The notes under the pieces: model-generated | Told to the model about the DNA's origin: nothing | The model's input: only the letters and a program-made list of their open reading frames with translations | Databases searched by the model: none | Assembly: GCA_012396115.1 (NCBI GenBank) | Contig: JAAXOU010000015.1 | Span: forward strand, 1 to 37,378 | DNA: 37,378 bases | Reading direction: 5' to 3' | Origin: Streptomyces somaliensis DSM 40738 | GTDB lineage: Bacteria; Actinomycetota; Actinomycetes; Streptomycetales; Streptomycetaceae | Program-made: the position numbers and the translations under genes | Shown: one piece after another, positions 3,781-29,007 of the stretch | Layout of the letters: each line of letters starts with the position of its first letter | Position numbering within the stretch: the stretch's first letter is position 1

Positions 3781-6615
<2,835 letters not shown>

Positions 6616-14171: not shown

Positions 14172-15701
14172 ATGGCAGACGACTACCTCGTACGCATCGG
14201 CAGGCTCATCCGCGACGCCCGGCAGCATCGGGGCTGGACGCAGACGCAACTCGCCACAGCACTGGCCACCAGTCAGAGCGCCGTGAACCGCATCGAACGC
14301 GGCAATCAGAACATCAGCCTTGAGATGATCGCCCGCATCGGTGAGGCACTCGACAGCGAGATCGTGTCACTGGGCTACGCGGGGCCCATGCACCTGCGGG
14401 TGGTCGGAGGCCGCCGCCTGTCCGGCGCGATCGACGTCAAGACGAGCAAGAACGCGTGCGTGGCGCTGCTGTGCGCCTCGCTGCTGAACAAGGGCCGCAC
14501 CGTCCTGCGCCGGGTCGCGCGCATCGAGGAGGTCTACCGGCTCCTGGAGGTCCTCAGCTCCATCGGCGTCCGCGCCCGCTGGATCAACGACGGCAGGGAC
14601 CTGGAGATCGTGCCGCCGGCCGAACTGGACATGGAGGCCATCGACGCGGACGCGGCCCGCCGCACCCGCTCCATCATCATGTTCCTCGGGCCGCTGCTGC
14701 ACCGGCTGCGCTCCTTCAAACTGCCCTACGCCGGCGGCTGCGACCTCGGGACGCGCACCGTCGAGCCGCACATGATCGCCCTGCGCCGCTTCGGCCTCGA
14801 CATCACCGCCACCGAGGGGCTGTACCACGCCGAGATCGACCCGTCGGTCGCGCCGGACCGCCCGATCGTCCTGACCGAACGCGGCGACACCGTCACCGAG
14901 AACGCGCTCCTGGCGGCCGCCCGCCACGACGGCACCACCGTCATCCGCAACGCCTCCTCCAACTACATGGTCCAGGACCTGTGCTTCTTCCTGGAGGCCC
15001 TCGGCGTGCGCGTGGAGGGCGTCGGCACGACGACGCTCACCGTGCACGGCGTCCCCCACATCGACGTGGACGTCGACTACTCGCCGTCCGAGGACCCGGT
15101 CGAGGCGATGAGCCTGCTGGCCGCCGCGGTCGTCACCGAGTCGGAGCTGACGATCCGCCGGGTGCCCATCGAGTTCCTGGAGATCGAGCTGGCGGTCCTG
15201 GAGGAGATGGGCCTCGATCACGACCGCTCCACCGAGTACACCGCGGACAACGGCCGTACGCGCCTGACGGACCTGACCGTGCGCCCCTCCAAGCTGGAGG
15301 CGCCCATCGACAAGATCCACCCCATGCCGTTCCCCGGCCTGAACATCGACAACGTGCCCTTCTTCGCGGCCATCGCCGCGTCCGCCCAGGGCAAGACCCT
15401 CATCCACGACTGGGTCTACGACAACCGCGCCATCTACCTGACCGACCTCAACCGGCTCGGCGGGCGCCTCCAGCTCCTCGACCCGCACCGCGTCCTCGTC
15501 GAGGGCCCGACCCGCTGGCGCGCCGCCGAGATGATGTGCCCGCCGGCCCTGCGCCCCGCGGTGGTCGTCCTCCTGGCCATGATGGCCGCCGAGGGCACCT
15601 CCGTCCTGCGCAACGTGTACGTCATCAACCGCGGTTACGAGGAACTCGCCGAACGCCTCAACTCGGTGGGCGCCCAGATCGAGACCTTCCGCGACATCTG
15701 A
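14172..15701 (+). CDS. XRE DNA-binding domain fused to MurA-like enolpyruvyl transferase
   Basis: A 509-residue two-part protein. Residues 6-61 are a Cro/C1-type HTH (IGRLIRDARQHRGWTQTQLA, TSQSAVNRIERGNQNIS). From about residue 74 it is an EPSP-synthase/MurA fold, which in MurA adds enolpyruvate from PEP to UDP-GlcNAc for peptidoglycan synthesis. The key residues are kept: Lys-Asn 93-94 (SKNACVALL), the PEP-attacked cysteine Cys190 in GGCDLGTRTVEPH with Arg195, and Arg487 in NRGYEE. The region of the catalytic Asp is altered (PFPGLNIDN, Asp393, instead of PAFPTDMQ). A diverged MurA2 that senses or modifies UDP-GlcNAc and regulates DNA is possible. From memory, S. coelicolor has a similar gene beside its aconitase gene. 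Confidence 0.88.
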   Translation: MADDYLVRIGRLIRDARQHRGWTQTQLATALATSQSAVNRIERGNQNISLEMIARIGEALDSEIVSLGYAGPMHLRVVGGRRLSGAIDVKTSKNACVALLCASLLNKGRTVLRRVARIEEVYRLLEVLSSIGVRARWINDGRDLEIVPPAELDMEAIDADAARRTRSIIMFLGPLLHRLRSFKLPYAGGCDLGTRTVEPHMIALRRFGLDITATEGLYHAEIDPSVAPDRPIVLTERGDTVTENALLAAARHDGTTVIRNASSNYMVQDLCFFLEALGVRVEGVGTTTLTVHGVPHIDVDVDYSPSEDPVEAMSLLAAAVVTESELTIRRVPIEFLEIELAVLEEMGLDHDRSTEYTADNGRTRLTDLTVRPSKLEAPIDKIHPMPFPGLNIDNVPFFAAIAASAQGKTLIHDWVYDNRAIYLTDLNRLGGRLQLLDPHRVLVEGPTRWRAAEMMCPPALRPAVVVLLAMMAAEGTSVLRNVYVINRGYEELAERLNSVGAQIETFRDI

Positions 15702-15930: not shown

Positions 15931-17124
15931 TCAGCGGGCCGCGACCAGGCGGGCAACCGCCTCGCGCAGCACTTCCTCACGTTTGCAGAAGGCGAACCGC
16001 ACGAGATGCCGTGGGGCTCCGTTCCCCTGGTGGAAAGCCGATGAGGGGACGGCCACCACACCGGCCCGGCCGGGGAGCTCCCGGCAGAACCGCACGGCGT
16101 CCGGCGCCCCCCAGGACCGAACGTCCGCCTGGACGAAGTAGCCGCCCTCGGCTCGCCAGGTCCGCAGGCCGGCCTGCTCCAGTCCCTCGCGGAGGAGGTC
16201 CCTCCGACGCTGGAGGGAGCGGTTCAGGTCCTGGATCCAGGCGTCGCACTCCCCCGAGGACAGGACCCAGGCGACAGCGCTCTGGAAGGGGGTGCCCGAA
16301 CCGAAGGTCAGGTACTGCTTGGCGGCGAGCAGCGGAGTGGTCAGGTGCCGCGGTCCGCAGGCCCAGCCGACCTTCCAGCCCGTGACGCTGAACGTCTTGC
16401 CGACCGAGGAGATCACCAGGGTGCGCTCGCCCATCCCCGGCAGTGCGGCGATCGTCGTGTGGGCGAGACCGTCGTAGGCGAGGTGCTCGTAGACCTCGTC
16501 GGTGACGACGGTCAGGTCGAAGTCACGGCAGACCTCGGCGACCTCGGCGAGCTCCGCGGGGGTGAAGACCTTGCCCGTCGGATTGTGCGGGGAGTTGAGC
16601 AGGAGGACCCGTGCCCTGGGCGATGCCGCCGCGACACGCAGTGCGTCGACGTCGAGAACGAACCCGTCGTCGTGCGGGGTCAGCGGTACGGGGACGAGGT
16701 CGGCCCCGGCCAGGTCGGCGACCGCCGAGTAGGAGTCGTAGCACGGGTTGAAGGTGATGAGTTCGTCTCCGGGGTCGCAGAAGGCGAGTACGGCGGCGGC
16801 GATCGCCTCGGTGGCTCCCGTCGTGATCACCACCTCCCCGTCGTCCGGCCGGTAGCGGGGGCCGTGTCCGTGGCGCGTCCGGTGTTCGGCGACGGCTGCG
16901 CGCAGTTCCGCCAGTCCGGCGGCGGGCGGGTACTGGTTGCGTCCGTCGGCGATGGCTTCCGCGGCGGACTGCAGGAGTGCGCCGGGACCGTCGGTGTCCG
17001 GAAAGCCCTGGCCGAGGTTGATGGCACCGGTGCGCTGGGCGAGCTCCGTCATCTCGCTGAAGACGGACGGGCGGAAGTCGCGCACCCGGGACGCGGGGGC
17101 CCAGTCGCGCGGCTGTTCCCTCAT
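15931..17124 (-). CDS. PLP aminotransferase, fold type I (class I/II)
   Basis: A 397-residue aminotransferase of the kynurenine/methionine/glutamine-transaminase-like branch of class I/II. The PLP lysine is in SSVGKTFSVTGWKVGW. The Asp that touches the pyridine nitrogen and its partner Tyr are in VVTDEVYEHL, the Asn in LNSPHNPTGKVFTP, and the C-terminal Arg in HLVRFAFCK. Length is normal. The ATG at 17124 shares ATGA with the stop of the nitroreductase gene, so it is the last gene of the operon and is translationally coupled. It would swap an amino group between a 2-oxo acid and an amino acid, either making the pathway's unusual amino acid or supplying a 2-oxo acid. Longer upstream starts would run inside the nitroreductase gene and are rejected. 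Confidence 0.9.
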   Translation of the reverse strand: MREQPRDWAPASRVRDFRPSVFSEMTELAQRTGAINLGQGFPDTDGPGALLQSAAEAIADGRNQYPPAAGLAELRAAVAEHRTRHGHGPRYRPDDGEVVITTGATEAIAAAVLAFCDPGDELITFNPCYDSYSAVADLAGADLVPVPLTPHDDGFVLDVDALRVAAASPRARVLLLNSPHNPTGKVFTPAELAEVAEVCRDFDLTVVTDEVYEHLAYDGLAHTTIAALPGMGERTLVISSVGKTFSVTGWKVGWACGPRHLTTPLLAAKQYLTFGSGTPFQSAVAWVLSSGECDAWIQDLNRSLQRRRDLLREGLEQAGLRTWRAEGGYFVQADVRSWGAPDAVRFCRELPGRAGVVAVPSSAFHQGNGAPRHLVRFAFCKREEVLREAVARLVAAR

Positions 17125-17747
17125 CGGGCGGCCCCCGAGGAGTCGGCCGTCGTGCTCGACGCCCGGCTCAGGGAGGTCACCCTGGTGCGCACGTCGAACA
17201 ACTGGCGGGGAGGGATTCTCGCGTCGGGGCTCGGGGTGCCCACGTACAGCCAGCCGAGCAGGCGTTCCAGGGCGGTCACCCCGACGCAGTCCCGCACCCA
17301 CGGGGAGTCGACGTTCCCGGTGCGCCAGATGGATCCCCAGCCTCGGCTGTGCAGGAGCAGATGCAGGGTGTGCACCATGGAGGCGGTGGCGGCGAGCTGC
17401 TCCCACTCCGGCACTTTGGAGTGGTCCAGTCGGGGGCGGAACACGATGGACACCAGCAAGGGCGCCCTCAACGGCTTGAGCCGCGCGCGTTCGGCCTTGC
17501 CGGGGTCGCCGGCCGACCGGCCGAGGGCCTCTCCCAGGCACCGGCGCTCCTCACCGCGGATCGTCACCAGCCGCCAGGGTCTGAGCGACCCGTGGTCCGG
17601 GGCGGTGGACGCGGCCTGGACCAGTTCCACCATCTCGTCGTCACTCGGCGCGGGATCGTTCAGCCGGGTCACACTGCGTCGGGTCAGCACCGCTTCCGTC
17701 ACTTCCACCTGTCGCCCCCTCGTATCGGCTACTGGTCGCTCGCTCAT
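17121..17747 (-). CDS. Nitroreductase-family flavoprotein, YdjA-like
   Basis: A 208-residue FMN-dependent oxidoreductase of the nitroreductase fold, close in motif to the YdjA subgroup. The FMN-binding start RRSVTRLNDPAPSDDEMVEL and the subgroup signature APDHGSLRPWRLVTI are clear, and the C-terminal glycine-rich part is WGSIWRTGN ... GWLYVGTPS. It normally works as a homodimer using NAD(P)H. In this operon it could reduce a C=C or N-O bond made by the enzymes upstream, for example after a dehydration, but that is inference. Both ends overlap neighbours by 4 bases (ATGA), so it is firmly part of the operon. The Ser/Thr-rich tail is unusual. Confidence 0.85.
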   Translation of the reverse strand: MSERPVADTRGRQVEVTEAVLTRRSVTRLNDPAPSDDEMVELVQAASTAPDHGSLRPWRLVTIRGEERRCLGEALGRSAGDPGKAERARLKPLRAPLLVSIVFRPRLDHSKVPEWEQLAATASMVHTLHLLLHSRGWGSIWRTGNVDSPWVRDCVGVTALERLLGWLYVGTPSPDARIPPRQLFDVRTRVTSLSRASSTTADSSGAAR

Positions 17748-19255
17748 TCAGGACGCGGCTCGTCGCCGCCGGCCGCCGAACGCGCCGACATCGGCCACAG
17801 GTCCCGTGTGGGCCCCTGGCGCGGTATGTCCTCGATCGCACGGGCCGTCGGTCCGGGCGCGTCCGCCACCAGCAGCAGGTCGGCGAGGTCCGCGAAGCCG
17901 GCGCGGAAGTGGTTGACGGACTTGACGCCGATGATCCGGCAGCGTTCGGGCACGACCCCGTGAAGGCGGATGATCTCGGGGTCGAGTACCTGTCGGCGCT
18001 CGGAGGCGACGATCACCTCGGTGTTCCCCACGGTGATCCGGGCACAGCGACCGAACTCCGTGGTCTTGCCCCGCCGCATCGCGGTCTGGACGGTCCTCCC
18101 GTCCGTGAGGGCGCGCACCGTCCCCACCGCCTCGACCGGCGGGCCACTGGCCCAGCCGTGCCGTCCGCCCAACCGGAAGCGAGCCGTCGCGCCGACACCC
18201 GCCGCCACCGCCGCGGCAACGGACTCGGGGTCCCACAGCGTGGCGAGGCACGTGGGCTCGGGCACGTCCAGCAGGGCCCGCAACAGGTGGGTGCTGTCAC
18301 CCGTGGCACCGCACCCCGGGTTGTCGCTGCCGTCGCCGATGACGACGGTGGTCGCGTCCGCCGCCAGAGCCCGGCGCACGGCTTCCCGCGGGTCGGTCAG
18401 CACGCTGCGGAACCGTTCACGGTGCGCTTCCAGCCAACGCGCCACCTCGTCACCGCAGCTCTCGGCCAGGGCCGGGTCCCCGTCGGCGACGGTGACCACG
18501 CTGGTGGCGGCCTGGTCGGTGTCGGCGTAGGGAAAGCCGTGGAAGACGGTGCAGGCCAGGATGCCGGGCCGACTCTCGACCTCCTTGACCGTTTCCATCA
18601 ACTCGCGTGCCGGAGCGCCCCGCGTCGTCGGGGACGGCGGCAGCAGCATGGCCAGTCTCCGCCGGTGCGCCGTGGGGCGTACCGTCCCACGGGCCGTTGA
18701 GAAGGCGAGATCCGCCGCGAGTCGTGCCCTCTCGGCGCAGTCGGTGTGCGGGTAGAGGTGGTACCCGCACACCACGTCGGCCAGGCCGAGGAGTTCGGAG
18801 GGGACGTTGGCGTGGAGATCCATGGTGACGGCTACGACCGCCTCGGGCAGAAGTCTCCGCACCGCACGCAGCACCGCCACGTCCAGCGAGCGGTCCGGCG
18901 CTATCACGCCTGCCCCGTGCAGGTCGAGCAGGACGACGTCGCACTGCCCGGCACCCCGTAGTTCCGATGCGAACCGCCCTTCCAGGACGCGGTAGGCGTC
19001 CTCGCCCATCGCCGCCCCGGGCTCGGCCCGGGCGTGGAAGGCCGGGCGAACCGCGACTCCCGCGGTGGAGCACGCCCGCAGGTAGCCGCCGACGACCGTG
19101 GCGGTGCCGGTGAACTCCCTGAGCAGGTCGTTCCCGGCGTGGCAGGAGAAGGCGGACGCCGTGGCCGTACCCAGGTACTCGACCATGAAGGTGCTCGACT
19201 CGTGCACCAGGCCGGCCACCGCCACCCGCAGGGCCCCCGTGTCACCGGCGTTCAC
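17744..19255 (-). CDS. M81 family metallopeptidase (MlrC-like)
   Basis: A 503-residue protein of the M81/MlrC family (N-terminal DUF1485 plus C-terminal MlrC domain). Family motifs are VAGLVHESSTFM, VVLLDLHGAGV, VTMDLHANVP, CGYHLYPHTD and, in the second half, VIGDGSDNPGCGATGDSTHL and GVKSVNHFRAGF. The Asp/His pairs are likely zinc ligands. MlrC of microcystin degraders cleaves linear peptides, but most members are in small-molecule clusters or catabolic operons and their true reactions are unknown. Here it follows RraA with a GTGA overlap and precedes the nitroreductase with an ATGA overlap. It could remove an amino-acid protecting group or hydrolyse an amide in the pathway. Complete length. 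Confidence 0.88.
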   Translation of the reverse strand: MNAGDTGALRVAVAGLVHESSTFMVEYLGTATASAFSCHAGNDLLREFTGTATVVGGYLRACSTAGVAVRPAFHARAEPGAAMGEDAYRVLEGRFASELRGAGQCDVVLLDLHGAGVIAPDRSLDVAVLRAVRRLLPEAVVAVTMDLHANVPSELLGLADVVCGYHLYPHTDCAERARLAADLAFSTARGTVRPTAHRRRLAMLLPPSPTTRGAPARELMETVKEVESRPGILACTVFHGFPYADTDQAATSVVTVADGDPALAESCGDEVARWLEAHRERFRSVLTDPREAVRRALAADATTVVIGDGSDNPGCGATGDSTHLLRALLDVPEPTCLATLWDPESVAAAVAAGVGATARFRLGGRHGWASGPPVEAVGTVRALTDGRTVQTAMRRGKTTEFGRCARITVGNTEVIVASERRQVLDPEIIRLHGVVPERCRIIGVKSVNHFRAGFADLADLLLVADAPGPTARAIEDIPRQGPTRDLWPMSARSAAGGDEPRPE

Positions 19256-19908
19256 GGGCGTGCCAGTCCCAGCGTGTTGTACCCGCTACGACGACGGGCT
19301 TCGCGCAGGGGGACCCCCGCGGCGAGGTCGGCGCGTATGGACTCCTCGGCCCGGGCGACCTGGAGCACTTTCCGCGCCGTGGGCTCCGCCATGCCGGCGG
19401 GGACCACCAGGCACCCCGCGTCGTCGCCGACCACGAGGTCGCCGGGCTCCACGCGGACGCCGAAGACGGTCACCGGTTGTTGCACCGAGACGAGCCGTAC
19501 CCGGTTCTTGCCGGACTTCATGTAGGTGGACAGGCTCCACAGCGGGTAGCCCAGTTCGCGGATGGCACCGATGTCCCGGCACGCTCCGTCGATGACCGTG
19601 CCCGCCACCCCGCGTCGCAGCGCCGTCTCGGCAAGCAGATCGCCCCATACGGTGCAGTGGCCGCGACCGCCGTTCGCGACCAGGACCACGGCCCCTTCGG
19701 GGACGTCGTCGATGAACTCGCCCGCCGGGGCCGGCTGCCCGCTCTCCACCGGTTCGTAGTGGAGGGTGTAGGCGGGACCCGCCACGGCCTTCGTGCCCGA
19801 CATCCGTACCACGCCGGGCAGCCCCGTGTCGCCGCGGCCCAGCATGTCCAGGGCGTCGCTCACCGCACTGGTTCCGTGAGCGCGGAAGATCTCGTTCACA
19901 GTGGACAT
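19252..19908 (-). CDS. RraA-family aldolase/decarboxylase-like protein
   Basis: A 218-residue protein of the RraA/HMG-aldolase fold. These proteins bind Mg2+ and split 4-hydroxy-4-methyl-2-oxoglutarate or decarboxylate oxaloacetate, while E. coli RraA instead inhibits RNase E. The catalytic stretch is present: GGRGHCTVWGDLLAETALRRG then VIDGACRD (Arg and Asp of the active site), preceded by DVPEGAVVLVANGG. Keeping these residues favours an enzyme. The C-terminal tail ARRRSGYNTLGLARP is family-like. The ATG overlaps the preceding stop by one base (TGATG). In a pathway with a DRE-TIM aldolase it may act on a 2-oxo acid intermediate. Confidence 0.87.
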   Translation of the reverse strand: MSTVNEIFRAHGTSAVSDALDMLGRGDTGLPGVVRMSGTKAVAGPAYTLHYEPVESGQPAPAGEFIDDVPEGAVVLVANGGRGHCTVWGDLLAETALRRGVAGTVIDGACRDIGAIRELGYPLWSLSTYMKSGKNRVRLVSVQQPVTVFGVRVEPGDLVVGDDAGCLVVPAGMAEPTARKVLQVARAEESIRADLAAGVPLREARRRSGYNTLGLARP

Positions 19909-21020
19909 CAGCGGACCCCGCCTCCCCGTAGTTCCTTCTCCTTCTCCACCTTGAGCGTGCCGGTGGGTTCCACTCCGGTGCCGGGCCGGGCGAGCGGGCG
20001 CACCCAGCCGGGTTCGTGGAAGACCAGGCGCGGCAGGGCGCCGTCGTCCCGGTAGTAGCCGTCACTGGGCCCGACGTCACTGGGGAGGGTCATGTTGGGG
20101 AGTGTGGCCAGGGCCAGGTTCGTCCACCGGCCGATGCCCTGGTCCCACTTGCCGCCCATGAACGTGGGGATCCCCTCGGCGGCGCAGAAGTCGTGTATCC
20201 GTACCGACTCGCCCAACCCGCCCACCCGGCCGGTCTTGATGTTGATCATGCGGCAGGCGCCCAGGCGCACGGCTTCCTGCGCCTCGCGCACTGAGTGGAT
20301 CTGCTCGTCCAGGCAGATCGGGGTGTCGAGACGGTGCTGCAGCCGGGTGGTGGCGGGGAGCGAGTGCCGGGGGAAGGGCTGCTCCAGGGCGAGCAGCCCG
20401 AGTTCGTCCATGGCCGCCAGGTGTTCCAGGTGGGATTCGTCGTAGGCGGCGTTGGCATCGGCGATGAGCGGTAACTGCGGGAAGGCGGCTCGCACTTCCC
20501 GTACGGGGTCGAGGTCCCAGCCCGGGCGGATCTTCAGCCGCAACCGCTGGTACCCCGTGCGCACGACGTCCGCCGCGCTTTCCACGAGTCGGTCGACGGT
20601 CGGTTCGATGCCGACCGTGGCGCCGACGGGTACGGGACGCACGGACCCGCCGAGTTCCTCGCACAGCGGCCGGCCGTGCAGTCTGGCCTGGAGGTCCCAC
20701 AGCGCGGCCTCGACCGCGCCCTTGGCCTCCTCGTGCCCGTTGACCTCGCGCCACAGCTCCATGCAGTGGTGGGGGTCGCTCCGCCCCGCGGCCAACAGCA
20801 TGGGGCCGAGGTACTCCTCGATGACGTACCACGCCGTCACGATGGTCTCGTAGTTGTAGAAGGGGGTCTCCATGGCGGTGCACTCGGCTCGCCCGGTCGC
20901 CCCCTCCCCTTCCGTTTCGACGATGAGTTTGGTCCAGGTGTGGTACCGCTGCCAGCGGTTCTCGAACGGTTGGGTCAGCTCGGCGGTCACCAGTCGCAGG
21001 GTGATCCTGTCTATGTTCAC
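19908..21020 (-). CDS. Enolase-superfamily enzyme, OSBS/NSAR-like
   Basis: A 370-residue member of the enolase superfamily, closest in pattern to o-succinylbenzoate synthase/N-succinylamino-acid racemase. Such enzymes abstract a proton alpha to a carboxylate and then dehydrate, racemise or cycloisomerise. Metal ligands are Asp188 (IADAN), Glu213 (LEQP) and Asp238 (CLDEQ). Catalytic lysines are Lys163 (RLKIRPGWD) and Lys262 (NIKTGRVGG). Two changes stand out: the first Lys of the KxK motif is Arg161, and the usual C-terminal GGMIETGIGR is GGKWDQGIGR (289-298), which lines the substrate pocket. A charged tail (KVEKEKEL) ends the protein. A substrate other than SHCHC or N-acyl amino acids is likely. 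Both ends overlap neighbours. Confidence 0.87.
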   Translation of the reverse strand: MNIDRITLRLVTAELTQPFENRWQRYHTWTKLIVETEGEGATGRAECTAMETPFYNYETIVTAWYVIEEYLGPMLLAAGRSDPHHCMELWREVNGHEEAKGAVEAALWDLQARLHGRPLCEELGGSVRPVPVGATVGIEPTVDRLVESAADVVRTGYQRLRLKIRPGWDLDPVREVRAAFPQLPLIADANAAYDESHLEHLAAMDELGLLALEQPFPRHSLPATTRLQHRLDTPICLDEQIHSVREAQEAVRLGACRMINIKTGRVGGLGESVRIHDFCAAEGIPTFMGGKWDQGIGRWTNLALATLPNMTLPSDVGPSDGYYRDDGALPRLVFHEPGWVRPLARPGTGVEPTGTLKVEKEKELRGGGVR

Positions 21021-22447
21021 GGGGTGGCGTCCCCCTTTCCCGTCTCGGGTACGTGCACGGCGAGCTTCTGGCCGCCCTGGAACAGGTTGACCCGCGCCGC
21101 CAGGCTCGCCTTCGAACCGAAGAACGCGGCCTTGCCGCCCAGGACATAGGTGTCGAGGCTGATGGGCATGGTGATGATCTGCGGACGGGCACCGGTGCGC
21201 ACGACCGGATAGGCGCTGGGCGCCACGTACCCCTGGACGATCGCGGGTCGTGCGACGCCCTCCGCGATCGCCTTCGACCAGGCGTCCCGGGTGACGGCAC
21301 GTCCCACGGTCACTCCGTCGCCGCGGATGTCGTACGGCTCCTTGACGACGTAGCGGTGCTGTTCGTCGAGTACGCGGTGCAGGGTGTCGTCGTCCGCCCG
21401 CAGGCGCCGGGTCCGGGGCAGCAACCCGGCCACCAGGCGTCTCTCCGCTTCGTCGAAGTGGTGGGCGAACTCCTCCTCCTGGAGGAGCGCGAGGGTCAGC
21501 TTGCTCTCAGCCACGTACCGGGCCGCGAAGGGGTTGACGTGCCACAGGTCCGTGTCGCGCAGCACACGCAGCCAGAGCTTGAGGAGCTCCGGATCCCGGT
21601 CGAGCATCTTCTCCCAGAGCACTGTGTTGACCTTGTTCCAGCAGACGTCGATCCTCCGGCGCCCCACCCGGGCGTGGCCGCCGGAAACCGCGATCCGGCG
21701 GGGATCGACGACGAGTGCCTCGACGCCCTCGGCCCGGAAGAAGGTGATCATCTCCAGGCTTTCCCGGTTCTCCTCGCCGTGCGGCTGGAGCACCGCCACG
21801 CACGGTGTGCGCTGTTGCCTTCGGGCATCCGTCAGCCCTGCGGTGAGCAGGTCGAGAAGGGCGGTTTCGGCCGGTCGGAAGCGTTCCGCGTGCGGGGGGA
21901 GCCGGATGCCCAGGTTCTGGAGAACCGCTGCCACCGCGGCGTGGACGCGAGGGGTGAACAGGGTGCCGGCCGGTGCGTCGGCGTTGTTCTCCAGCACCCG
22001 GAGCCGCTCACCGCCCTGTTCGAGGTAGCCGTCGAGGCGGCACACGTGGATCCGGGCGGGGTCGCCCGACTCGGCTTCCGCGTCGATGAGCGCTTCGGCC
22101 GCGTCGCTCAGCCCGTACCATCGGCGCACCGGTTCATCGTGTCGATGGATCCGTACGACCTTCTCCAGCAGTTCGACGTACGCCTCGAGCCGCTCCGCCG
22201 TGCGGGCGGCCGCCGTGTGCTCCACGAGGAGCGGCAGGGGGGAGAGGGGGTAGTCCTTGTTCCGGAAGGCCGGGACTTCGGTTTCCGCCCGGGCCACCGC
22301 CGCCGCGAGCGACCGGTCCGTGTCCGCGCGGTGTGTGCGGCTCAGCCGGGCGGCCGTCTCCAGGGCCGTCTCCCAGTCGATCAGGCCCGGTGCCGAAGCG
22401 GTCTCGTCCGTGTCGTTCACTTCCCCGACCGCGTCTGGGGTTTCCAC
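21017..22447 (-). CDS. ATP-grasp-like ligase (circularly permuted/glutathionylspermidine-synthase type)
   Basis: A 476-residue cytoplasmic protein. The stretches RVLENNADAPAGTLFTPRVH, VCWNKVNTVLWEKM and RYVVKEPYDIRGDGVTVGR look like the ATP- and metal-binding parts of permuted ATP-grasp proteins, in which acidic/Asn-rich loops come before the lysine strand and the glycine-rich loop. The N-terminal ~140 residues are helical. Such enzymes join a carboxylate to an amine through an acyl phosphate. The family call is from pattern only, so it is moderate. The GTG at 22447 is served by a GGAGG that lies at the end of the aminotransferase gene, and the stop overlaps the enolase-family start by ATGA. 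It would do the amide-forming step of the operon. Confidence 0.6.
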   Translation of the reverse strand: METPDAVGEVNDTDETASAPGLIDWETALETAARLSRTHRADTDRSLAAAVARAETEVPAFRNKDYPLSPLPLLVEHTAAARTAERLEAYVELLEKVVRIHRHDEPVRRWYGLSDAAEALIDAEAESGDPARIHVCRLDGYLEQGGERLRVLENNADAPAGTLFTPRVHAAVAAVLQNLGIRLPPHAERFRPAETALLDLLTAGLTDARRQQRTPCVAVLQPHGEENRESLEMITFFRAEGVEALVVDPRRIAVSGGHARVGRRRIDVCWNKVNTVLWEKMLDRDPELLKLWLRVLRDTDLWHVNPFAARYVAESKLTLALLQEEEFAHHFDEAERRLVAGLLPRTRRLRADDDTLHRVLDEQHRYVVKEPYDIRGDGVTVGRAVTRDAWSKAIAEGVARPAIVQGYVAPSAYPVVRTGARPQIITMPISLDTYVLGGKAAFFGSKASLAARVNLFQGGQKLAVHVPETGKGDATP

Positions 22448-22450
22448 GGG

Positions 22451-23392
22451 TCACCCTCCTGCTCGTCGTGGCGCGCGGGCGGGACACGGCTGCTTCGCGG
22501 GCGGGGGGCCGCCCCTCGCCTCCTGGAAGTACGCGGCGATCAGCCGGCGGGTCAGCGGGCGCTGTTCGCGGCACCGGCACGGTCGCCCGTCGAAGGACGC
22601 CACTGGCGCGAACTCCAGCCCCGTACCGCACAGGAACGCCTCGTCCGCCCGGTAGGCGTCTTCCTGTGTGATCCCGGTCTCCTCGACGGGGACCTCCAGG
22701 GAGTGCGCGGCCCCGATCACCCATGATCGGGTGATGCTGGGCAGTACGTCCTCCGTGAGTGCGGGGGTGAGCAGTACCCCGTCGCGCACGAGGAACAGGG
22801 CGGCGGTCGGGGCCTCCGAGAGCCGTCCGTGCCGGTTGGTGAGGACGCAGCCGTCGTAGCCGGCCTCCTTGGCTTCCAGCCAGGCCAGCCGGGGACCGGC
22901 GTAGTTGGCGATGTTCTTGGCCGCGGGCGGGTGCACGGCGGCGGATCCGCGTTGCCAGTTGCTGATGCACAGTGCCATGGCGCGTTCCTCCGCCAGCCAC
23001 TGCTTGCGCCCCATGGGGGTGGCGGTCACGCTCAGCTGGGGGTCGGCGGCCTCCGCCAGCGTTCCGGGGTTGAGCGGAGTGGCCGCCACCCTCACATAGG
23101 CGTCGCTCGTTATGGCGTTGCGCGTGATCAGTTCGTCGATGATCCCGGGCAGGTCCGCCAGCCCGGGGTCCGGGAACCGCATGGCGCGCAGCGAGGCGGC
23201 CATCCGGTTGATGTGGTCCGCCAGGAGGAAGGGCTCGGCGAGGCCGCCTGTCGCCGGCGTATAGAGTCTGATGCCTTCGAATACGGACAGCCCGTAGCGC
23301 ATCGCCAAGCTGCCGATGGGGACCCGGGCCTCGGCCCGGGTCACCCATCGACCGCCGAAGTGGACATGCGGATAGGGCGGTTGGTCGTTCAC
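22451..23392 (-). CDS. Class IV aminotransferase (BCAT/D-AAT fold)
   Basis: A 313-residue PLP aminotransferase of fold type IV, the group of branched-chain and D-amino acid aminotransferases and ADC lyase. Visible motifs are RYGLSVFEGIRLY near the N-terminus, the PLP lysine in PAAKNIANYAGPRLAW, EAGYDGCVLTNRHGRLSEAP (Glu contacting the cofactor nitrogen) and LLTPALTEDVLPSITRSWVI. The C-terminal DEAFLCGTGLEFAPV is the usual active-site edge. The GTG at 23392 begins NDQPPYPHVHFGGRWV. A much longer frame upstream only reads through the neighbouring gene. Three bases separate it from the ATP-grasp start. It gives the operon two unrelated aminotransferases, so two different amino-transfer steps are likely. 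Confidence 0.9.
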   Translation of the reverse strand: MNDQPPYPHVHFGGRWVTRAEARVPIGSLAMRYGLSVFEGIRLYTPATGGLAEPFLLADHINRMAASLRAMRFPDPGLADLPGIIDELITRNAITSDAYVRVAATPLNPGTLAEAADPQLSVTATPMGRKQWLAEERAMALCISNWQRGSAAVHPPAAKNIANYAGPRLAWLEAKEAGYDGCVLTNRHGRLSEAPTAALFLVRDGVLLTPALTEDVLPSITRSWVIGAAHSLEVPVEETGITQEDAYRADEAFLCGTGLEFAPVASFDGRPCRCREQRPLTRRLIAAYFQEARGGPPPAKQPCPARAPRRAGG

Positions 23393-23439
23393 CGCGTCAT
23401 CCTGTCGTCTGCGTGTTCCTCGTCGACGTCCTGCCGGGC

Positions 23440-24201
23440 TCAGCCCTCGTAGACGAAGACCGGCTCCGAGGAGTCGTACCCGGCGCGCAGTATGGCGTCG
23501 AAGTGCCGGTGGCGCAGATCGATGGCCTGCCGCAGGCTGTCCTTGGCGTCCTGCTGGCGCTGCGGCGTGTCGCAGTAGCGGAGCAGGAGCTGCCGCAGCG
23601 GCTCGGTGTGCTCGTCCTCCAGTTCGCTGACACCCTCCTGGTCCGAGTCGCTGGAGGCGTGATGGACGAAGAACTCGTACCCCCAGTCGGGAAGCTTGTA
23701 CACGTCCCGCATCACCGCGAGCATGCTGTGACCCGACGAGTTGGTGATGGGCGGCTGGCCCTCCATCAGCATCAGCACGGAGGTGGCGCCGACCGTGAAG
23801 TGCACGTTGGTGTTGTTGCAGGCGTTCTTGTTGTGCTCGATCAGGGCCGTGGTTTCGGGGAACAGCTCGACGTTCGGCAGAGTGGCCGGATCGACGCCGA
23901 CGGCCCGGCCGAAGTCCTCGAAGGTCTCGACGTGCCGCTTGGAGTCGGTCAGCCCCCCGGTCTCCTCCTCGTAGGCGTTCTCGATGAAGGAACGGCGCAG
24001 GTCGAGGTCGTCCACGCGCTGGCCGATGCCCATGAGGTTGCGGGTCCACCAGCTCTTGATGGGCCAGCGCTGGATCACGAACGTCTGAAGCAGGCGCTGT
24101 GTCGCCTTGCCCTCGAGGATGGTCTGGTAGAGCGGGCTGGTCATCTTCGAACGCTCGGCGATGATGCTTTCGACTTCTTCGAGGAACGAGGTGCTGGACA
24201 C
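23440..24201 (-). CDS. Heme-oxygenase-like diiron oxidase (HDO/TenA-PqqC fold)
   Basis: A 253-residue all-helical protein of the iron-containing redox enzyme family (relatives: CADD, UndA, BesC, SznF). These use a labile diiron centre and O2 to N-oxygenate, desaturate or cleave amino acids. Likely ligands are Glu78-80 and His90 in NAYEEETGGLTDSKRH, Glu147 in LMEGQPP, and His180/181, Asp185 and Gln188 in FFVHHASSDSDQEG. Most relatives have H-x3-D-x2-H here, so the last His appears as Gln. GTG 24201 is preceded by GGAGGAG, whereas an upstream alternative would place that site inside the gene. It is the only oxygenase-like gene of the operon and probably makes its most distinctive bond. Confidence 0.82.
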   Translation of the reverse strand: MSSTSFLEEVESIIAERSKMTSPLYQTILEGKATQRLLQTFVIQRWPIKSWWTRNLMGIGQRVDDLDLRRSFIENAYEEETGGLTDSKRHVETFEDFGRAVGVDPATLPNVELFPETTALIEHNKNACNNTNVHFTVGATSVLMLMEGQPPITNSSGHSMLAVMRDVYKLPDWGYEFFVHHASSDSDQEGVSELEDEHTEPLRQLLLRYCDTPQRQQDAKDSLRQAIDLRHRHFDAILRAGYDSSEPVFVYEG

Positions 24202-24248
24202 TTTTCTCCTCCGGGTGTTTTTACGGCTGGCGCTCTGGTGCAAGGAGC

Positions 24249-25184
24249 TCAGCGGACGGCAGACGTACCGTCCAGGATCGAGAACACCTTTTTCGGGTTC
24301 ATCGCACGGATTTCAGCCAGGTCCTCCATGTTGAGATCGAGCAGGCCGCTGGCTATGGATTCGCACTGAGCGAGGATCTGGTCACCTTTCCAGGGGACCA
24401 GGAGATCGGCTGCCGCATCGACGAGGGGGGTGACGCAAAACGCCTGGCAAGCCCGCGACCGCAGGTAGCCCGTGATGAGTTGCAGCGAGAGGTTGCCTCC
24501 GCCCTTCCCCATCCCGGACAGGGACGCGTCGACATAGCGGGCACCGAGGCGCATCGCGGTGAGGGTGTTGGCGAAACTCATGCTGATGCCGTCGTGGGGA
24601 TGGAATCCGAGCGTCGCGCCTGTGCTCTCGCGCACCATCCCGCACAAACGGCCGACGTCCTCCGGGAAGAGGCTTCCGTTGGAGTCGGCCAGGTAGAAGA
24701 TGTCGGCGGTGATCTCTTCCGCCGTCCGCGCGGCGGCCACGACGTCGTGATCCGGCACTTCGCTGACGCGGATGAGGTTGACGGCGAAGGAGAGGCCGGC
24801 GCCGTGCGCGGCGTCCGCATAGGGGGCGAGTCGTTCCAGCCGGTCCGGCCGGGTCGGCATCCGCACCATGCTGACCCCGAAGTCCGCCAGCCGGGCCAGG
24901 TCTTCGGGAACGGTGTCCTTCGCGTGCGCCATCACGACCGTATCGATGCCGGCTGCCGCCTCGGCAACCCGTTCCAGGTACGCGGGAGGACAGGAGGCGG
25001 AGGGCGCCTCGTCCCCGTCGACCGCGTGACGACCGGGACGCAGGTACCCGATTTCGATGTAGGGGACACCGGCCGCCCGGCAGGCGGTGACCAGCCGGGT
25101 TGCCTGCGCGATGGTCCAGGAGTGCCCGTTGACGTATCCACCATCACGGATGGTGACATCCAGTAACTCTGCTCGCTCTGCCAA
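24249..25184 (-). CDS. DRE-TIM metallolyase/aldolase (DmpG/HMGL-like)
   Basis: A 311-residue TIM-barrel aldolase of the HMGL-like superfamily, nearest in motif to 4-hydroxy-2-oxovalerate aldolase. The DRE motif is LLDVTIRDGGYVNG (Arg, metal-binding Asp). The metal histidines are in LGFHPHDGISMSFANT, and the family stretch VDASLSGMGKGGGN follows. DmpG's catalytic His after the RDG is absent. Such enzymes join pyruvate (or an acyl-CoA) to an aldehyde, or split the product. It is the first gene after the predicted promoter, so probably the first step of the pathway. No ATG fits: I chose TTG 25184 (then AERAELLDV), with a G-rich stretch upstream. The start is uncertain; the body of the gene is not. 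Confidence 0.83.
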   Translation of the reverse strand: MAERAELLDVTIRDGGYVNGHSWTIAQATRLVTACRAAGVPYIEIGYLRPGRHAVDGDEAPSASCPPAYLERVAEAAAGIDTVVMAHAKDTVPEDLARLADFGVSMVRMPTRPDRLERLAPYADAAHGAGLSFAVNLIRVSEVPDHDVVAAARTAEEITADIFYLADSNGSLFPEDVGRLCGMVRESTGATLGFHPHDGISMSFANTLTAMRLGARYVDASLSGMGKGGGNLSLQLITGYLRSRACQAFCVTPLVDAAADLLVPWKGDQILAQCESIASGLLDLNMEDLAEIRAMNPKKVFSILDGTSAVR

Positions 25185-25333
25185 TTGAATTGCGCCCCCG
25201 AACCGATAGGCAATTATCCGAGAAATGCATTCTTGAAGCAGGGAGAACGGGAGGTGGTTCAAACGGAGAGCAACCCGTGAGAACTTTCGTGGAGCGTCGG
25301 CAGGTGAGTTCGCTCTCCGCTCGGACACGTTGA

Positions 25334-25362
25334 ACCCTAGGTCAGCGGAAAAAGAGCGGCAA
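25334..25362 (-). promoter_or_regulatory. Promoter of the nine-gene operon
   Basis: On the minus strand TTGCCG (25362-25357) and TAGGGT (25339-25334) are 17 bases apart. Both are good Streptomyces vegetative hexamers. Transcription would start near 25327, giving a leader of about 140 bases before the TTG start of the aldolase. No other promoter this good is seen within the operon. Confidence 0.6.
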
Positions 25363-25902
25363 GGGAGCCCCGCTCGATGGGCTGAAACCGTTCCATAGCC
25401 AGTGGCGTGGCGCGGCAACGGGTAAGAGGCCCACACCAATGGCGATTGATCTTGCGCATACGTTCCCAGCACCCCGACCGCCACTGCATCGCACCGCACG
25501 CCGCTTTCTTCAACACAGGTCGACTCGCGTCGTCCACCTGCACCGACACCGCATGTGAGGCACTCGGTTCCGCCTCGTGGACCTCCGGGGCCGGGGGAGG
25601 AAACCCGGCACTCCCCTTCCGGGAACGGCGTCGGGAGTGCCATGACGCGTGCGGGCCGACACTCGAACCACCGAAGGCGTTCCAGGCCAAGGCCGCCCGG
25701 TACCCGCTCACGGACACCGGCCGGCGAAGGCAGCGTCCACGCGCCACCGGTTGGCGGATCGCGGGGAGCGGGGAGCCGGCCGCCTCGTCCCGGTGAACAC
25801 TCCTCGTCCTGCGGTCCGCGGGTGACGGCGGCCGGTGGCCGGGGCCGCGACGCGGCAGGGCCCCGGTCGTCGCGGTGGGGTGATCTCACCCGCCGACGTC
25901 TC
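25363..25902. other. Gene-free stretch upstream of the operon
   Basis: No convincing gene in either direction: the open frames lack family motifs and start sites. It contains a 9-bp stem, GGCACTCCC (25607-25615) with GGGAGTGCC (25633-25641), around a 17-base loop. GC and codon pattern suggest decayed DNA joined to the transposase relic that follows. Confidence 0.5.
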
Positions 25903-26439: not shown

Positions 26440-27306
26440 TCAGCTACGGGAAAGCCCCGTCTCGCTGCGCAGGAACTGGCCGGGGGTCACCCCTGTGTGG
26501 CGTTTGAAGACGCGGGTGAAGTGCGCCTGGTCGTAGAAGCCCGTGCGGTGTGCCACATCGGCGGGCCGCACCCCCTCGAAGAGGAGCGTTCGTGCCCGCC
26601 AGACCCTTAACTGCGTCTGGTAGGCGTGCGGCGGCATTCCCATGGAGGCGGAGAAGGTGCGGATGAGGTGGTGAACGCCGACTCCGCAGATACGGGCGAG
26701 TTCTTTGAGCGTGACGTCCTCGTCCGAGTGCGTATGGAGGTAGTCGAGTGCGGTGCGCGTGACCCGCGTCATCCGCCCTGCCGGATCGGCGTGGTCGGAG
26801 CCGGTGGAGACCTGTTCGGCCAGGGCGCGGCCGACGTCCAGCAGTGCGGTCTCACGGGCAAGGGCCGACGCGTAGGAGGTGAGCGCGTCATGGGCTCGTG
26901 CCAGGGAGTGGACGAGCCGGGCACTGGACAGCCTCTCGCTGTCCGGCAGGCGGGACGTCACCGTCGTCGAGCCGAGCATTTCACCCACGAAGTCGGGCTC
27001 GACGTACAAGACGCGGTACCGGTAACCCTCCGGAGTGGCCGCTCGGCCGGTGTGTGGTTCTCCCGGTCTGATGACGAAGGCGGCGCCGGCCGGTACCACG
27101 TGCTCTCGGCCCGCGCACTCGAATGCGGCGGCCCCGGAATCGACCAGGGCGAGCGTCATGCCCTCGTGGGCATGGCGGGCGTACCTGTGACGCCGGAAGA
27201 ATGCGTGCAGCACCTCGATACCTGCCACCGGCGGACGCCAGAGGACCGCTCGGTCCGCGCGGTGCGATCCGCCTTCAGACTCGGTCGGCAACGGGCTGGA
27301 GGACAT
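26440..27306 (-). CDS. AraC-family transcriptional regulator
   Basis: A 288-residue regulator with an N-terminal cupin sensor (HEGMTLALVDSGAAAFECAG, VIRPGEPHTG) and a C-terminal double HTH: first helix pair VTLKELARICGVGVHHLIRTF, here cited as VTLKELARICGVG and HHLIRTFSASMG; second ADVAHRTGFYDQAHFTRVFK followed by RHTGVTPGQFLRS. This arrangement (AraC_binding plus HTH_18) is common for regulators beside EamA/LysE exporters. It is on the same strand as DUF2000 and EamA, 237 bases after the DUF2000 stop and beyond a terminator hairpin, so it has its own transcript. It probably senses the exported compound. The ATG at 27306 lacks a strong ribosome site. Confidence 0.9.
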   Translation of the reverse strand: MSSSPLPTESEGGSHRADRAVLWRPPVAGIEVLHAFFRRHRYARHAHEGMTLALVDSGAAAFECAGREHVVPAGAAFVIRPGEPHTGRAATPEGYRYRVLYVEPDFVGEMLGSTTVTSRLPDSERLSSARLVHSLARAHDALTSYASALARETALLDVGRALAEQVSTGSDHADPAGRMTRVTRTALDYLHTHSDEDVTLKELARICGVGVHHLIRTFSASMGMPPHAYQTQLRVWRARTLLFEGVRPADVAHRTGFYDQAHFTRVFKRHTGVTPGQFLRSETGLSRS

Positions 27307-27543: not shown

Positions 27544-27972
27544 TCAGGAGTGCATGACAGCGCCCCGGACGACCTTGTCGACCTCGCGCCGGTCACCACG
27601 CACCGCGATCCCCGCCAGGATCAGCTGGTCGGCGGGCACGTCCGCGATGGTGGCGCGGTTGTCCTCGTCGTTGTTGGTGGCGAAGATCGCCTGCGGGTAG
27701 ACAGCCATGATCACGTCTCGGCGCAGTGCCCGCTGGTGGATGGTCTTCATCCGCTCGGCGTCCACGCTGAACACCAGAACCGGCTGGCGGAACATGGGCA
27801 AGTACGTGTTTCCGTCCTTGTCGGTGTACGGCTCCCCGACGACGTCGGGGACCGTCCCCGCAATGCCACTGGTGGTGAAGGCGGTGACGTTCAGCTTCTG
27901 CCAGTCCTGCAGGTCGTCCCGGAGGACAACTGCGATCTTCGTGTCCCAGTCGAACCTGGTGGGGGTGCTCAT
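27544..27972 (-). CDS. DUF2000 family protein
   Basis: A 142-residue protein of the DUF2000 family, which has a peptidyl-tRNA-hydrolase-2-like fold but no assigned reaction. The family opening KIAVVLRDDLQDWQKLNVTA is clear, as is the later VLVFSVDAERMKTIHQRAL. Length is usual. It follows the EamA gene by 63 bases and belongs to the same transcript. In other bacteria DUF2000 genes also sit beside AraC regulators and amino-acid-type exporters, so a role in handling or sensing an aminoacyl compound is reasonable but unproven. Confidence 0.85.
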   Translation of the reverse strand: MSTPTRFDWDTKIAVVLRDDLQDWQKLNVTAFTTSGIAGTVPDVVGEPYTDKDGNTYLPMFRQPVLVFSVDAERMKTIHQRALRRDVIMAVYPQAIFATNNDEDNRATIADVPADQLILAGIAVRGDRREVDKVVRGAVMHS

Positions 27973-28035: not shown

Positions 28036-29007
28036 CTACACCGCCGTGTGCCGTTCAAGGGTGGAGCCGCCGGTCTCGGGAGATATCGCCCCCGAACGGG
28101 TTTCGCTCCCGTCTTCGACGACGGCGTTTCGGGGCTGCCGGGTCAGGATGAGCAGCCCCGCGAATATCGCCATGACTCCCACCACCTGCATCGCCGACGG
28201 CCGCTCGCCCAGTACTGCGAACGCCAGGACCACGGCAGCCAGCGGCTCCGCGAGATTGAGCGTGGCCACGGCGGTGGCCGGGACCTTCCTCAGCCCGCGG
28301 GCGTTGAGCCAGAAAGCAAGGGCGCTGGTGAACAATCCCAGGTAAAGCGCCATCAGTGCCCCCGAGGGCGTGACCAGCCAGGCGGGGCCGGAAACGAGGA
28401 GAACGGGAAGCAGCAGCGCCCCGGACAGGGCGACGGCGATCGTCGTCACCTCGGTGACCGGCGCTCCCGCGTCAAGCAGTTCGCGGCTGAGCACGGTGTA
28501 CAGAGACACGCTACTCCCTGCGGTCAGGCACAGTACGAATCCCAGGATGTCAGCTTTGGCCTCTCCCGCCACACCACTCGACGCGATCAGGCCGGCGATG
28601 GCCAATACGGTCGCCACGTACCAGCGGCCCGTCGGCTTCTCCTTGCGCAGCAGGTACGCGACCACACCGGTGGCTATGGGTACCGTGGCCACCGTGACGA
28701 TCGACCCTATCGCGACACCGACGCGGCTGATCCCGCTGAAGTAACACGCTTGGTAGACCGCGACCGAGGCCCCCAGCAACACGGTGGTACCCGGAAACCT
28801 CCGCGCCACGGTGAAACGATTCCGCTGGTAGACCGCCAGGCACACCAGGAAGAGTCCGCCCACCAGCACCCGGGCGGCTCCCACCGCCGACGGTGACGCC
28901 CCCGGCCCCAGGGCCTGGGCCACACCGCTCGTTCCGAACAGCGTGGACCCGGCCAGAACGGCCAGGACGGCTGTTGAATGCGGCGATACCCGCTGTTTCA
29001 TCGACAT
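28036..29007 (-). CDS. EamA/DMT-family exporter
   Basis: A 323-residue, 10-helix drug/metabolite transporter with two EamA repeats. The first runs from AVLAGSTLFGTSGVAQALGP, and the second begins around ADILGFVLCLTAGSSVSLYT and ends with LAAVVLAFAVLGERPSAMQV. It probably exports an amino acid, nucleoside-like or other small metabolite. GGAGG stands just before ATG 29007; a second ATG two codons later has better spacing and could be the real start. It is the first gene of a two-gene unit with DUF2000, with an AraC regulator further on. An AT-rich inverted repeat lies about 80 bases upstream. Confidence 0.9.
   Translation of the reverse strand: MSMKQRVSPHSTAVLAVLAGSTLFGTSGVAQALGPGASPSAVGAARVLVGGLFLVCLAVYQRNRFTVARRFPGTTVLLGASVAVYQACYFSGISRVGVAIGSIVTVATVPIATGVVAYLLRKEKPTGRWYVATVLAIAGLIASSGVAGEAKADILGFVLCLTAGSSVSLYTVLSRELLDAGAPVTEVTTIAVALSGALLLPVLLVSGPAWLVTPSGALMALYLGLFTSALAFWLNARGLRKVPATAVATLNLAEPLAAVVLAFAVLGERPSAMQVVGVMAIFAGLLILTRQPRNAVVEDGSETRSGAISPETGGSTLERHTAV

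What the first reader, a model, noticed from the sequence alone, without database searches (positions are those of the whole stretch)
15931..25362. Unassigned nine-gene biosynthetic operon built on a diiron oxidase, two aldolases and an ATP-grasp ligase
Nine minus-strand genes share one good promoter. The last six are joined by overlaps of 1-4 bases, and the first four by gaps of 3-47. Together they encode C-C bond formation (DRE-TIM aldolase, RraA), proton abstraction/dehydration (enolase fold), reduction (YdjA-like), two amino transfers (PLP fold types I and IV), O2 activation (HDO), amide ligation (ATP-grasp) and an M81 hydrolase. No NRPS, PKS, terpene, RiPP or phosphonate gene is present, so standard cluster finders would probably miss it. 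A possible route: pyruvate aldol, dehydration, reduction and transamination give an unusual amino acid, the HDO oxidises it and the ligase couples it. I know of no described cluster with this set. The order of steps is inference.
Basis: partly seen in the sequence, partly recalled or inferred. Interest (0 to 1): 0.85.

Follow-up and report, generated by a model that had tools for sequence, protein, structure and literature searches.

The report
Undescribed unusual-amino-acid gene cluster
A Streptomyces-type bacterium carries a compact set of genes that very probably builds, modifies and moves out an unusual small amino acid or amide; versions of the set occur in several distant groups of bacteria, and what it makes appears to be unknown.

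Summary
The nine genes are real and laid out as described: gaps 47, 47, 3, then overlaps 4, 1, 4, 4, 4; all nine families hold. The shared promoter is only plausible. The cluster is larger than stated: an AraC regulator, a DUF2000 protein and an EamA transporter upstream (26440-29007) have relatives beside the same operon elsewhere.

It is not private to this strain. Among 24 loci from four phyla, found with the oxidase as bait, aldolase and diiron oxidase are adjacent in 24 and the first four genes are in order in 18. There are two main architectures. 22 of 24 carry an amide hydrolase, from five families.

Best reading: a biosynthetic pathway. Aldolase and oxidase build a skeleton, the transaminase makes the amino acid, the ATP-grasp ligase forms an amide, an N-acyl-amino-acid-racemase-like enolase acts on it, and M81 opens it. 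Product and step order are inferred. Seven literature searches aimed at the set found no description. Aldolase relatives sit in a phosphonate-peptide-like cluster with similar logic. New variant of a known kind.

The parts
24249..25184 (-). gene 1: DRE-TIM (HMGL-like) metal-dependent aldolase, 'GGY' subgroup
   Evidence: Pfam HMGL-like; best PDB 3dxi putative aldolase, then 4-hydroxy-2-oxovalerate aldolases; R13, D14 in at least 90% and H195, H197 in all of 24 aligned; Tyr17 where the known aldolases have a catalytic His (roles of these residues recalled)
23440..24201 (-). gene 2: haem-oxygenase-like diiron oxidase (HDO)
22451..23392 (-). gene 3: class IV (branched-chain-type) aminotransferase
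   Evidence: Pfam Aminotran_4; best PDB branched-chain aminotransferase 5ce8 with a Lys aligned to Lys in the region I recall as the PLP site; a strict AKN..Y motif is found in 15 of 22 homologs
21017..22447 (-). gene 4: glutathione-synthetase-like / circularly permuted ATP-grasp amide ligase
19908..21020 (-). gene 5: enolase superfamily, NSAR/OSBS type (N-acyl-amino-acid racemase-like)
   Evidence: NCBIfam TIGR01928 above cut-off; best PDB 1sja, 250.8 bits; K163, K262, D188, E213, D238 invariant in 14 of 14 aligned
19252..19908 (-). gene 6: RraA-type class II pyruvate aldolase / oxaloacetate decarboxylase-like
   Evidence: Pfam RraA-like; R111 and D112 invariant in 18 of 18 aligned; D-x20-R-D present, followed by Ala where the recalled motif has an acid
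17744..19255 (-). gene 7: M81 (MlrC-like) metallo-amidohydrolase
   Evidence: Pfam DUF1485 and MlrC_C; best PDB microcystinase C 7ylq, 181.8 bits
17121..17747 (-). gene 8: YdjA-like FMN nitroreductase-family oxidoreductase
   Evidence: Pfam Nitroreductase; best NCBIfam PRK10828, 122.5 bits, below its cut-off 183
15931..17124 (-). gene 9: class I aminotransferase (PRK07777-like)
   Evidence: Pfam Aminotran_1_2; NCBIfam PRK07777, 533.1 bits, just below cut-off 553
26440..27306 (-). AraC-family regulator, probably of the cluster
   Evidence: Pfam AraC_binding + HTH_18; homolog beside the operon in L008 (68%), L031 (45%), L014 (45%)
27544..27972 (-). DUF2000 protein, cluster-associated
   Evidence: Pfam DUF2000; homolog beside the operon in L008 (85%), L037/L007 (66%), L031/L010 (65%), L014 (62%); controls
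28036..29007 (-). EamA (DMT) transporter, possible exporter of the product
   Evidence: Pfam EamA, two stretches; homolog beside the operon in L008/L029 (77%) and inside it in L038 (36%); direction of transport untested
25334..25362 (-). possible promoter TTGCCG-17-TAGGGT (weak evidence)
   Evidence: 70 of 500 shuffles score as high; scan found none

Best explanation
A biosynthetic cluster (15931-29007) for a small, transported, non-proteinogenic amino-acid or short-amide metabolite. Proposed working: (a) the DRE-TIM enzyme joins a pyruvate-type enolate to an aldehyde or oxo acid, giving a hydroxy-oxo acid; (b) the adjacent HDO uses O2 to remodel that skeleton or to supply its aldehyde partner (known HDO reactions include C-C cleavage, desaturation and N-oxygenation; N-oxygenation would instead place it after step c); RraA removes pyruvate or CO2 from a beta-hydroxy/oxo acid; (c) the class IV transaminase aminates; (d) the glutathione-synthetase-like ATP-grasp enzyme makes an amide of the new amino acid; (e) the NSAR-like enolase acts on the alpha carbon of this N-acyl amino acid, most simply epimerising it; (f) the M81 hydrolase opens the amide; nitroreductase and class I transaminase tailor; EamA transports; AraC regulates. 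Shown: gene content, folds, conserved residues, conserved neighbourhood, a transaminase-ligase fusion in one relative, ligase and hydrolase recurring together. Inferred: substrates, product, order of steps, and that the amide is a temporary mask.
Against: No substrate or product was tested. L022 has none of the five hydrolase families in view and L025 no ligase; L021 shows neither, but its contig is cut. L009 lacks class IV transaminase, ligase and RraA at the site (its genome has a second cluster, L018). Of 7 Type II clusters 5 show no enolase, L027 has one and L020 a divergent one, so epimerisation is not universal. Distance correlations can arise from shared ancestry alone. The fusion is one record and could be a lost stop. 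RraA, M81, enolase-superfamily and nitroreductase families are also common in catabolism (recalled). The mask idea cannot be told apart from an amide that is part of the final product. MFS and EamA proteins may also import.
Confidence: 0.55

Rival explanations
1. Precursor supply for a nonribosomal peptide: the operon makes a building block that an NRPS loads and incorporates; in this strain the NRPS partner was lost, differs, or lies on another contig.
For: A C-A-T NRPS, a thioesterase and a B12-binding radical SAM gene sit beside the operon in L007/L037, L009 and L010/L031, and NRPS plus the same radical SAM gene in L012's genome. A different, larger NRPS lies upstream of the operon in L016.
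Against: Of 8 genomes searched with that NRPS, 4 (G035, G181, G876, G872) have it at 58-100% identity; the window's genome, G006, G337 and G874 show only hits of 38-48% identity. Of 10 searched with the radical SAM protein, the same 4 match at 1e-30 and 6 do not. Seven Type II clusters have further ATP-grasp ligases instead. The draft genome is in 535 contigs and other NRPS genes exist in it, so this is not excluded.
Confidence: 0.25
2. Catabolic or salvage operon: M81 opens an external amide, the enolase and aminotransferases process the amino acid, and the two aldolases run in the cleavage direction to give pyruvate.
For: RraA, M81, enolase-superfamily and nitroreductase enzymes are frequent in degradation (recalled); the nearest named aldolases to gene 1 (4-hydroxy-2-oxovalerate aldolases) work in catabolism (recalled); an AraC regulator would fit induction by a substrate; transport direction is unknown.
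Against: An ATP-consuming ligase (21 of 24) and a diiron oxidase (bait) are among the most constant partners; NRPS, methyltransferase and radical SAM genes lie beside relatives; rarity (HDO strong match in 3 of 150 genus genomes; 4 of 394 in the family).
Confidence: 0.12
3. The HDO is a self-sacrificing CADD-like enzyme that cuts aminobenzoate-type units from its own tyrosine, and the other genes elaborate that unit.
Against: NCBIfam CADD model 51.9 bits against cut-off 200; nothing else in the operon points to aromatic acids; a single-turnover protein is an odd core for a carbon-building pathway.
Confidence: 0.05

Closest known systems
Mangotoxin (mbo) cluster of Pseudomonas
   Same: HDO plus stand-alone ATP-grasp amino-acid ligases making a small antibacterial peptide without an NRPS (PMC13185094: abstract, first third of Results and passages seen).
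   Different: There the HDO acts on a ligase-made tripeptide of ordinary amino acids; the word aldolase does not occur in the text. That paper reports at least 25 unique BGCs with an HDO and an ATP-grasp ligase, so this one may be among its unlisted ones; its supplement was not available.
Rhizocticin/plumbemycin-type phosphonate peptide clusters
   Same: A DRE-TIM aldolase, a transaminase, ATP-grasp ligases and an MFS protein in one cluster (L066). That the aldolase builds the amino acid skeleton there (RhiG) is recalled, not read.
   Different: No PEP mutase among the 20 window proteins scanned; aldolases only 32% identical and in a different part of the tree.
E-64 (cp1) pathway ligase Cp1B
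   Different: Very distant (17% over the fold); fungal pathway with an Fe(II)/2-oxoglutarate oxygenase, a decarboxylase and an amide bond synthetase.
N-succinylamino acid racemase / o-succinylbenzoate synthase family
   Same: Gene 5 belongs by NCBIfam TIGR01928 and conserved residues.
   Different: Substrate unknown; first lysine of the KxK motif is Arg in 11 of 14 copies, the window's included.
Other HDO enzymes: UndA, BesC, HrmI, FlcD, PolF
   Same: HDO fold.

Membership tests
Haem-oxygenase-like diiron oxidases (HDO) | Haem-oxygenase-like helical fold | tested here: met
Haem-oxygenase-like diiron oxidases (HDO) | 3 His / 3 carboxylate ligand set on three core helices | tested here: inconclusive
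   Invariant E78-E80, H90, E147, H180, H181, E195, H198 in 21 of 21 could supply the set described in PMC13108848 (section read), but residues 187-194 are under pLDDT 50 and the spacing differs from CADD; geometry not measured
Haem-oxygenase-like diiron oxidases (HDO) | Metal binding and O2 activation | not testable with these tools
   needs protein
4-hydroxy-2-oxovalerate aldolase (equivalog) | NCBIfam TIGR03217 curated cut-off | tested here: not met
   109.3 bits against 286
4-hydroxy-2-oxovalerate aldolase (equivalog) | Metal and pyruvate residues of the DRE-TIM barrel (recalled) | tested here: met
   R13, D14 in at least 90% and H195, H197 in all of 24 aligned (the L040 row starts late)
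4-hydroxy-2-oxovalerate aldolase (equivalog) | Catalytic His after the RDG motif (recalled) | tested here: not met
   Tyr17 instead
N-succinylamino acid racemase / OSBS family | NCBIfam TIGR01928 cut-off | tested here: met
   244.8 bits against 200.65
N-succinylamino acid racemase / OSBS family | Two acid/base lysines and three metal carboxylates | tested here: met
   K163, K262, D188, E213, D238 invariant in 14 of 14
N-succinylamino acid racemase / OSBS family | Racemises N-succinyl amino acids or makes OSB | not testable with these tools
   needs assay
RraA-type pyruvate aldolase | D-x20-R-D-x2-E/D motif (recalled) | tested here: inconclusive
   D-x20-R-D present in the window but followed by Ala at the last position; 15 of 21 copies show D-x20-R-D in register, 6 of them with the final acid; 5 copies do not show it and one hit in L027 is out of register
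Microcystinase MlrC | NCBIfam NF041767 cut-off | tested here: not met
   185.7 bits against 999; M81 family membership itself is met
Branched-chain aminotransferase (equivalog) | NCBIfam PRK06606 cut-off | tested here: not met
   185.3 bits against 279
Mangotoxin-type HDO/ATP-grasp clusters | HDO and ATP-grasp ligase together | tested here: met
Mangotoxin-type HDO/ATP-grasp clusters | Flavin/Fe2S2 reductase partner (MboB) and arginine deiminase (MboE) | tested here: not met
   no such Pfam family among the 20 window proteins scanned (one of the 20 has no family); other parts of the window were not scanned
Phosphonate peptide clusters | PEP mutase | tested here: not met
   absent among the 20 window proteins scanned; present in L066

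The most novel reading that the evidence does not exclude
The always-adjacent DRE-TIM aldolase and HDO form a two-enzyme unit, spread over at least four bacterial phyla, that makes a warhead amino acid by an HDO reaction on an aldol-derived acid not yet known. The amino acid is then handled as an N-acyl or peptide amide (ligase), stereo-inverted in that state by an N-acyl-amino-acid racemase in the window's type, and released by interchangeable amide hydrolases (M81, M20, penicillin amidase, AAT, PIG-L): a protecting-group logic solved several times independently.
Probability: 0.33. Interest if true: 0.8.

Novelty: new variant of a known kind. Interest (0 to 1): 0.62.

Why it matters
HDO enzymes keep giving unexpected chemistry (rearrangements, azetidines, alkynes), and only about a dozen were functionally validated at the time of a 2026 mini-review (PMC13108848, section read). 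A compact operon with at least two natural architectures gives a way to a new one, with the partner enzymes identified and few enough to reconstitute in vitro. Because the window's version holds no NRPS, PKS or RiPP gene that I recognised, rule-based cluster finders would probably miss it (not tested). If the product is an antimetabolite, as in the phosphonate peptides that share the aldolase type, it would be a new small antibiotic lead.

Tried and rejected
MurA-like gene at 14172-15701 as a self-resistance gene: rejected; it carries an N-terminal HTH, lies near the aconitase gene in what I recall as ordinary Streptomyces synteny, and gave no match at 1e-8 in the 28 sequences searched (duplicates included). 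M20 peptidase and MFS at 11292-13899 as the Type II hydrolase/transporter pair: rejected, because blastp against the Type II proteins gave no match at 1e-5. NRPS A-domain specificity in L007: residues read by eye against recalled positions gave no assignment I trust. Plasmid or viral spread: no HDO relative in PLSDB or, by patterns, in IMG/VR. DUF2000 as a specific marker: weakened. It is common (65 of 101 genus genomes); the three closest copies there (100, 85 and 65% identity; next 61%) come from genomes with this operon, but in G337, which has the operon, the single copy lies far away. Paper searches: 10 of 10 used. Seven were aimed at the gene set or HDO clusters and gave no described cluster with this set; three were aimed at parts (Cp1B, racemase, rhizocticin). 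One search listed 30 of 54 papers and one search listed 20 of 39, so titles beyond those were not seen; the library holds open-licence papers only.

The first home-made gene caller misread several loci and the window (wrong strand or missed genes); the counts use homology-anchored ORFs instead, which see only the families searched, so 'adjacent' and 'in order' mean with no other searched family between.

Rows dropped: L027 was left out of the HDO alignment because its HDO frame holds a stop, and out of the RraA alignment; a second RraA copy in L011 was also left out of that. L013's second HDO is in the HDO alignment, its cluster's own HDO is not. L040's aldolase row starts late. L002/L008, L003/L010/L031, L007/L037 and L023/L039 are the same loci and counted once. 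L019 and L021 are near-copies. The L064 row in the aldolase tree has a wrong long N-terminus. The HDO-cluster aldolases come out on one side of a branch with weak support only (77/63). Only L066 and L072 of the eight aldolase neighbourhoods fetched were scanned with Pfam, plus one protein of L069.


Full report
What is there. The window is one whole contig (37378 bp, GC 70.9%) of a 4.73 Mb, 535-contig draft genome, 99.4% complete. Same-genus hits G006 and G035 have contig lengths equal to those of Streptomyces sp. CB03234 and S. mashuensis, so I take the genus to be Streptomyces. Nine minus-strand ORFs run from 25184 to 15931 with gaps of 47, 47 and 3 and overlaps of 4, 1, 4, 4 and 4 bases. 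Pfam and NCBIfam support the nine families. The promoter claim is weak.

The cluster is larger. AraC (26440-27306), DUF2000 (27544-27972) and EamA (28036-29007), all minus strand, have relatives next to the same operon in other genomes in different arrangements: AraC, DUF2000 and EamA in L008/L029 at 68, 85 and 77% identity; AraC and DUF2000 in L031 and L014; DUF2000 in L037; an EamA inside the operon of L038. Control: DUF2000 as a family is common in the genus (65 of 101 genomes). But the three closest copies there belong to the genomes with the operon (G000, G006, G035), and in 5 of 6 operon genomes searched the single copy lies within 14 kb of the HDO; in G337 it does not.

Distribution. 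With the HDO as bait, strong relatives occur in 3 of 150 genus genomes (6 pass E 0.001, 3 of them only 23-24% identical), 4 of 394 in the family, 2 of 394 in the class and 1 of 244 in a cyanobacterial phylum sample; each count includes the centre genome. A pattern scan of the species-genome collection gave 21 loci, L007-L027. With L038, L040 and the window this makes 24 loci. They include Streptomycetaceae, Pseudonocardiaceae, Streptosporangiaceae, a Thermomonosporaceae MAG, Actinocrinis, an unplaced Actinomycetota MAG, Tistrella, Pseudomonas, Advenella, three cyanobacteria and a Chloroflexi MAG. The scan needs exact short peptides of the window's protein, so more distant members are missed.

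Architecture (only the families searched are seen). Aldolase and HDO adjacent in 24 of 24; core four in order in 18 of 24. Type I, 11 loci: core, enolase, RraA, M81, nitroreductase, with a last gene that is the class I transaminase (window, L008, L012, L014), a 4HBT thioesterase (L007, L009, L010) or RidA (L015, L016); L038 shows no such gene. Exceptions: L009 lacks the class IV transaminase, ligase and RraA; L011 is cut by its contig end. Type II, 7 loci (L013, L017, L018, L020, L023, L027, L040): core plus MFS, M20 peptidase and a second glutathione-synthetase-like ligase in 7 of 7, and an ATP-grasp_4 ligase in 5 of 7. Of the cyanobacteria, L019 has penicillin amidase, a GCS2-type glutamate ligase and EamA, L021 (cut contig) GCS2 and EamA, L026 penicillin amidase and a PhzF-like gene. 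Pseudomonas PS862 has MFS, PIG-L, a RimK-type ligase and an AAT-type protein. Advenella shows aldolase, HDO, transaminase and PIG-L. One of five hydrolase families is present in 22 of 24; the exceptions are L021 and L022.

Extra partners. In L007/L037, L009, L010/L031 and L012 a C-A-T NRPS runs towards the operon, with a B12-binding radical SAM gene in all four genomes, and with a thioesterase seen in the first three. In L031 and L037 that operon also holds DUF2000 and a class I transaminase 57% and 50% identical to gene 9 (the latter cut by the locus edge). In the window's genome the NRPS query gave only hits of 40-45% identity and the radical SAM query none. So in this strain the pathway seems independent of that NRPS.

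Co-inheritance. Pairwise distances of eight families correlate at r 0.68-0.93 over 9-24 loci; common descent could give this too. Stronger: one Streptomyces genome (ODS25) holds a Type I-like and a Type II locus (L009, L018) whose aldolases fall in two different fully supported groups (100/100 each), the Type II one shared with other actinobacterial families, so architecture follows the gene lineage rather than the species.

Mechanism. I propose: aldol joining, O2-dependent remodelling, transamination, amide formation, alpha-carbon chemistry on the N-acyl form, hydrolysis, transport. Supported directly: families, residues, neighbourhood and fusion. Inferred: everything about substrates and order. 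Known HDO reactions also include N-oxygenation (PMC13108848), which would put the HDO after the transaminase. The placement of the enolase after the ligase rests on the known substrates of its family (N-acyl amino acids; recalled, and PMC5808125 passages on enolase-type epimerases). The mask idea rests on the recurrence of different amide hydrolases beside the ligase; an amide in the final product would explain the ligase but not as easily the hydrolase.

Comparison and novelty. Seven searches of an open-licence library aimed at the set found no cluster like this; two of the listings were capped. Mangotoxin shares HDO plus ATP-grasp ligase, and its authors counted at least 25 such clusters, shown only in a supplement I could not read (PMC13185094); this type may be among them. 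I file it as a new variant of a known kind: ligase-made amino-acid metabolites with an HDO, here with a new enzyme set.

Noticed in passing
L013:5330-7699 (-): Class IV transaminase and ATP-grasp ligase in one frame of 790 residues in Actinocrinis puniceicyclus; a lost stop by sequencing error is not excluded.
   Followed up: partly
L013:9986-10777 (+): A second, lone HDO copy, closer to the window's (68%) than that cluster's own copy (58%), divergent from a Type II cluster.
   Followed up: no
L031:3597-12876, L037:3-6463: NRPS operon (NRPS, thioesterase, B12-binding radical SAM, DUF2000, class I transaminase; EamA and AraC in L031) running towards the Type I operon; NRPS and radical SAM genes found so in 4 genomes; product unknown.
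   Followed up: partly
L016:1-20753: Acrocarpospora catenulata: two NRPS ORFs (one cut by the edge), PhzF-like, the Type I operon, RidA, a methyltransferase and class II DAHP synthase in one run.
   Followed up: no
L066, L067: Two clusters with a DRE-TIM aldolase of the next-closest kind; L066 has PEP mutase, split TPP decarboxylase, class V transaminase, two ATP-grasp ligases and MFS and looks like a rhizocticin/plumbemycin-type cluster (L067 not scanned with Pfam).
   Followed up: partly
L072:3998-13460; also L068, L069: Another gene set pairing this aldolase subgroup with RraA, fused in L072 to an isopropylmalate-dehydrogenase-like domain, plus FAD, DUF6282 and nitronate-monooxygenase-like genes; RraA homologs also in L068 and L069.
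   Followed up: no
window 14172-15701 (+): MurA homolog with an N-terminal HTH, near the gene I read as aconitase at 3781-6633; recalled as ordinary Streptomyces synteny.
   Followed up: partly
window 30270-32795 (+): Long secreted-looking protein ending in LADTG, a hydrophobic stretch and a basic tail, like a sortase substrate (read by eye).
   Followed up: no
window 8913-9827 (-): Protein that looks by eye like an aminoglycoside-phosphotransferase-family kinase; not searched.
   Followed up: no
L027:10001-10688: HDO frame of the Chloroflexi MAG holds a stop codon; broken gene or assembly error.
   Followed up: no
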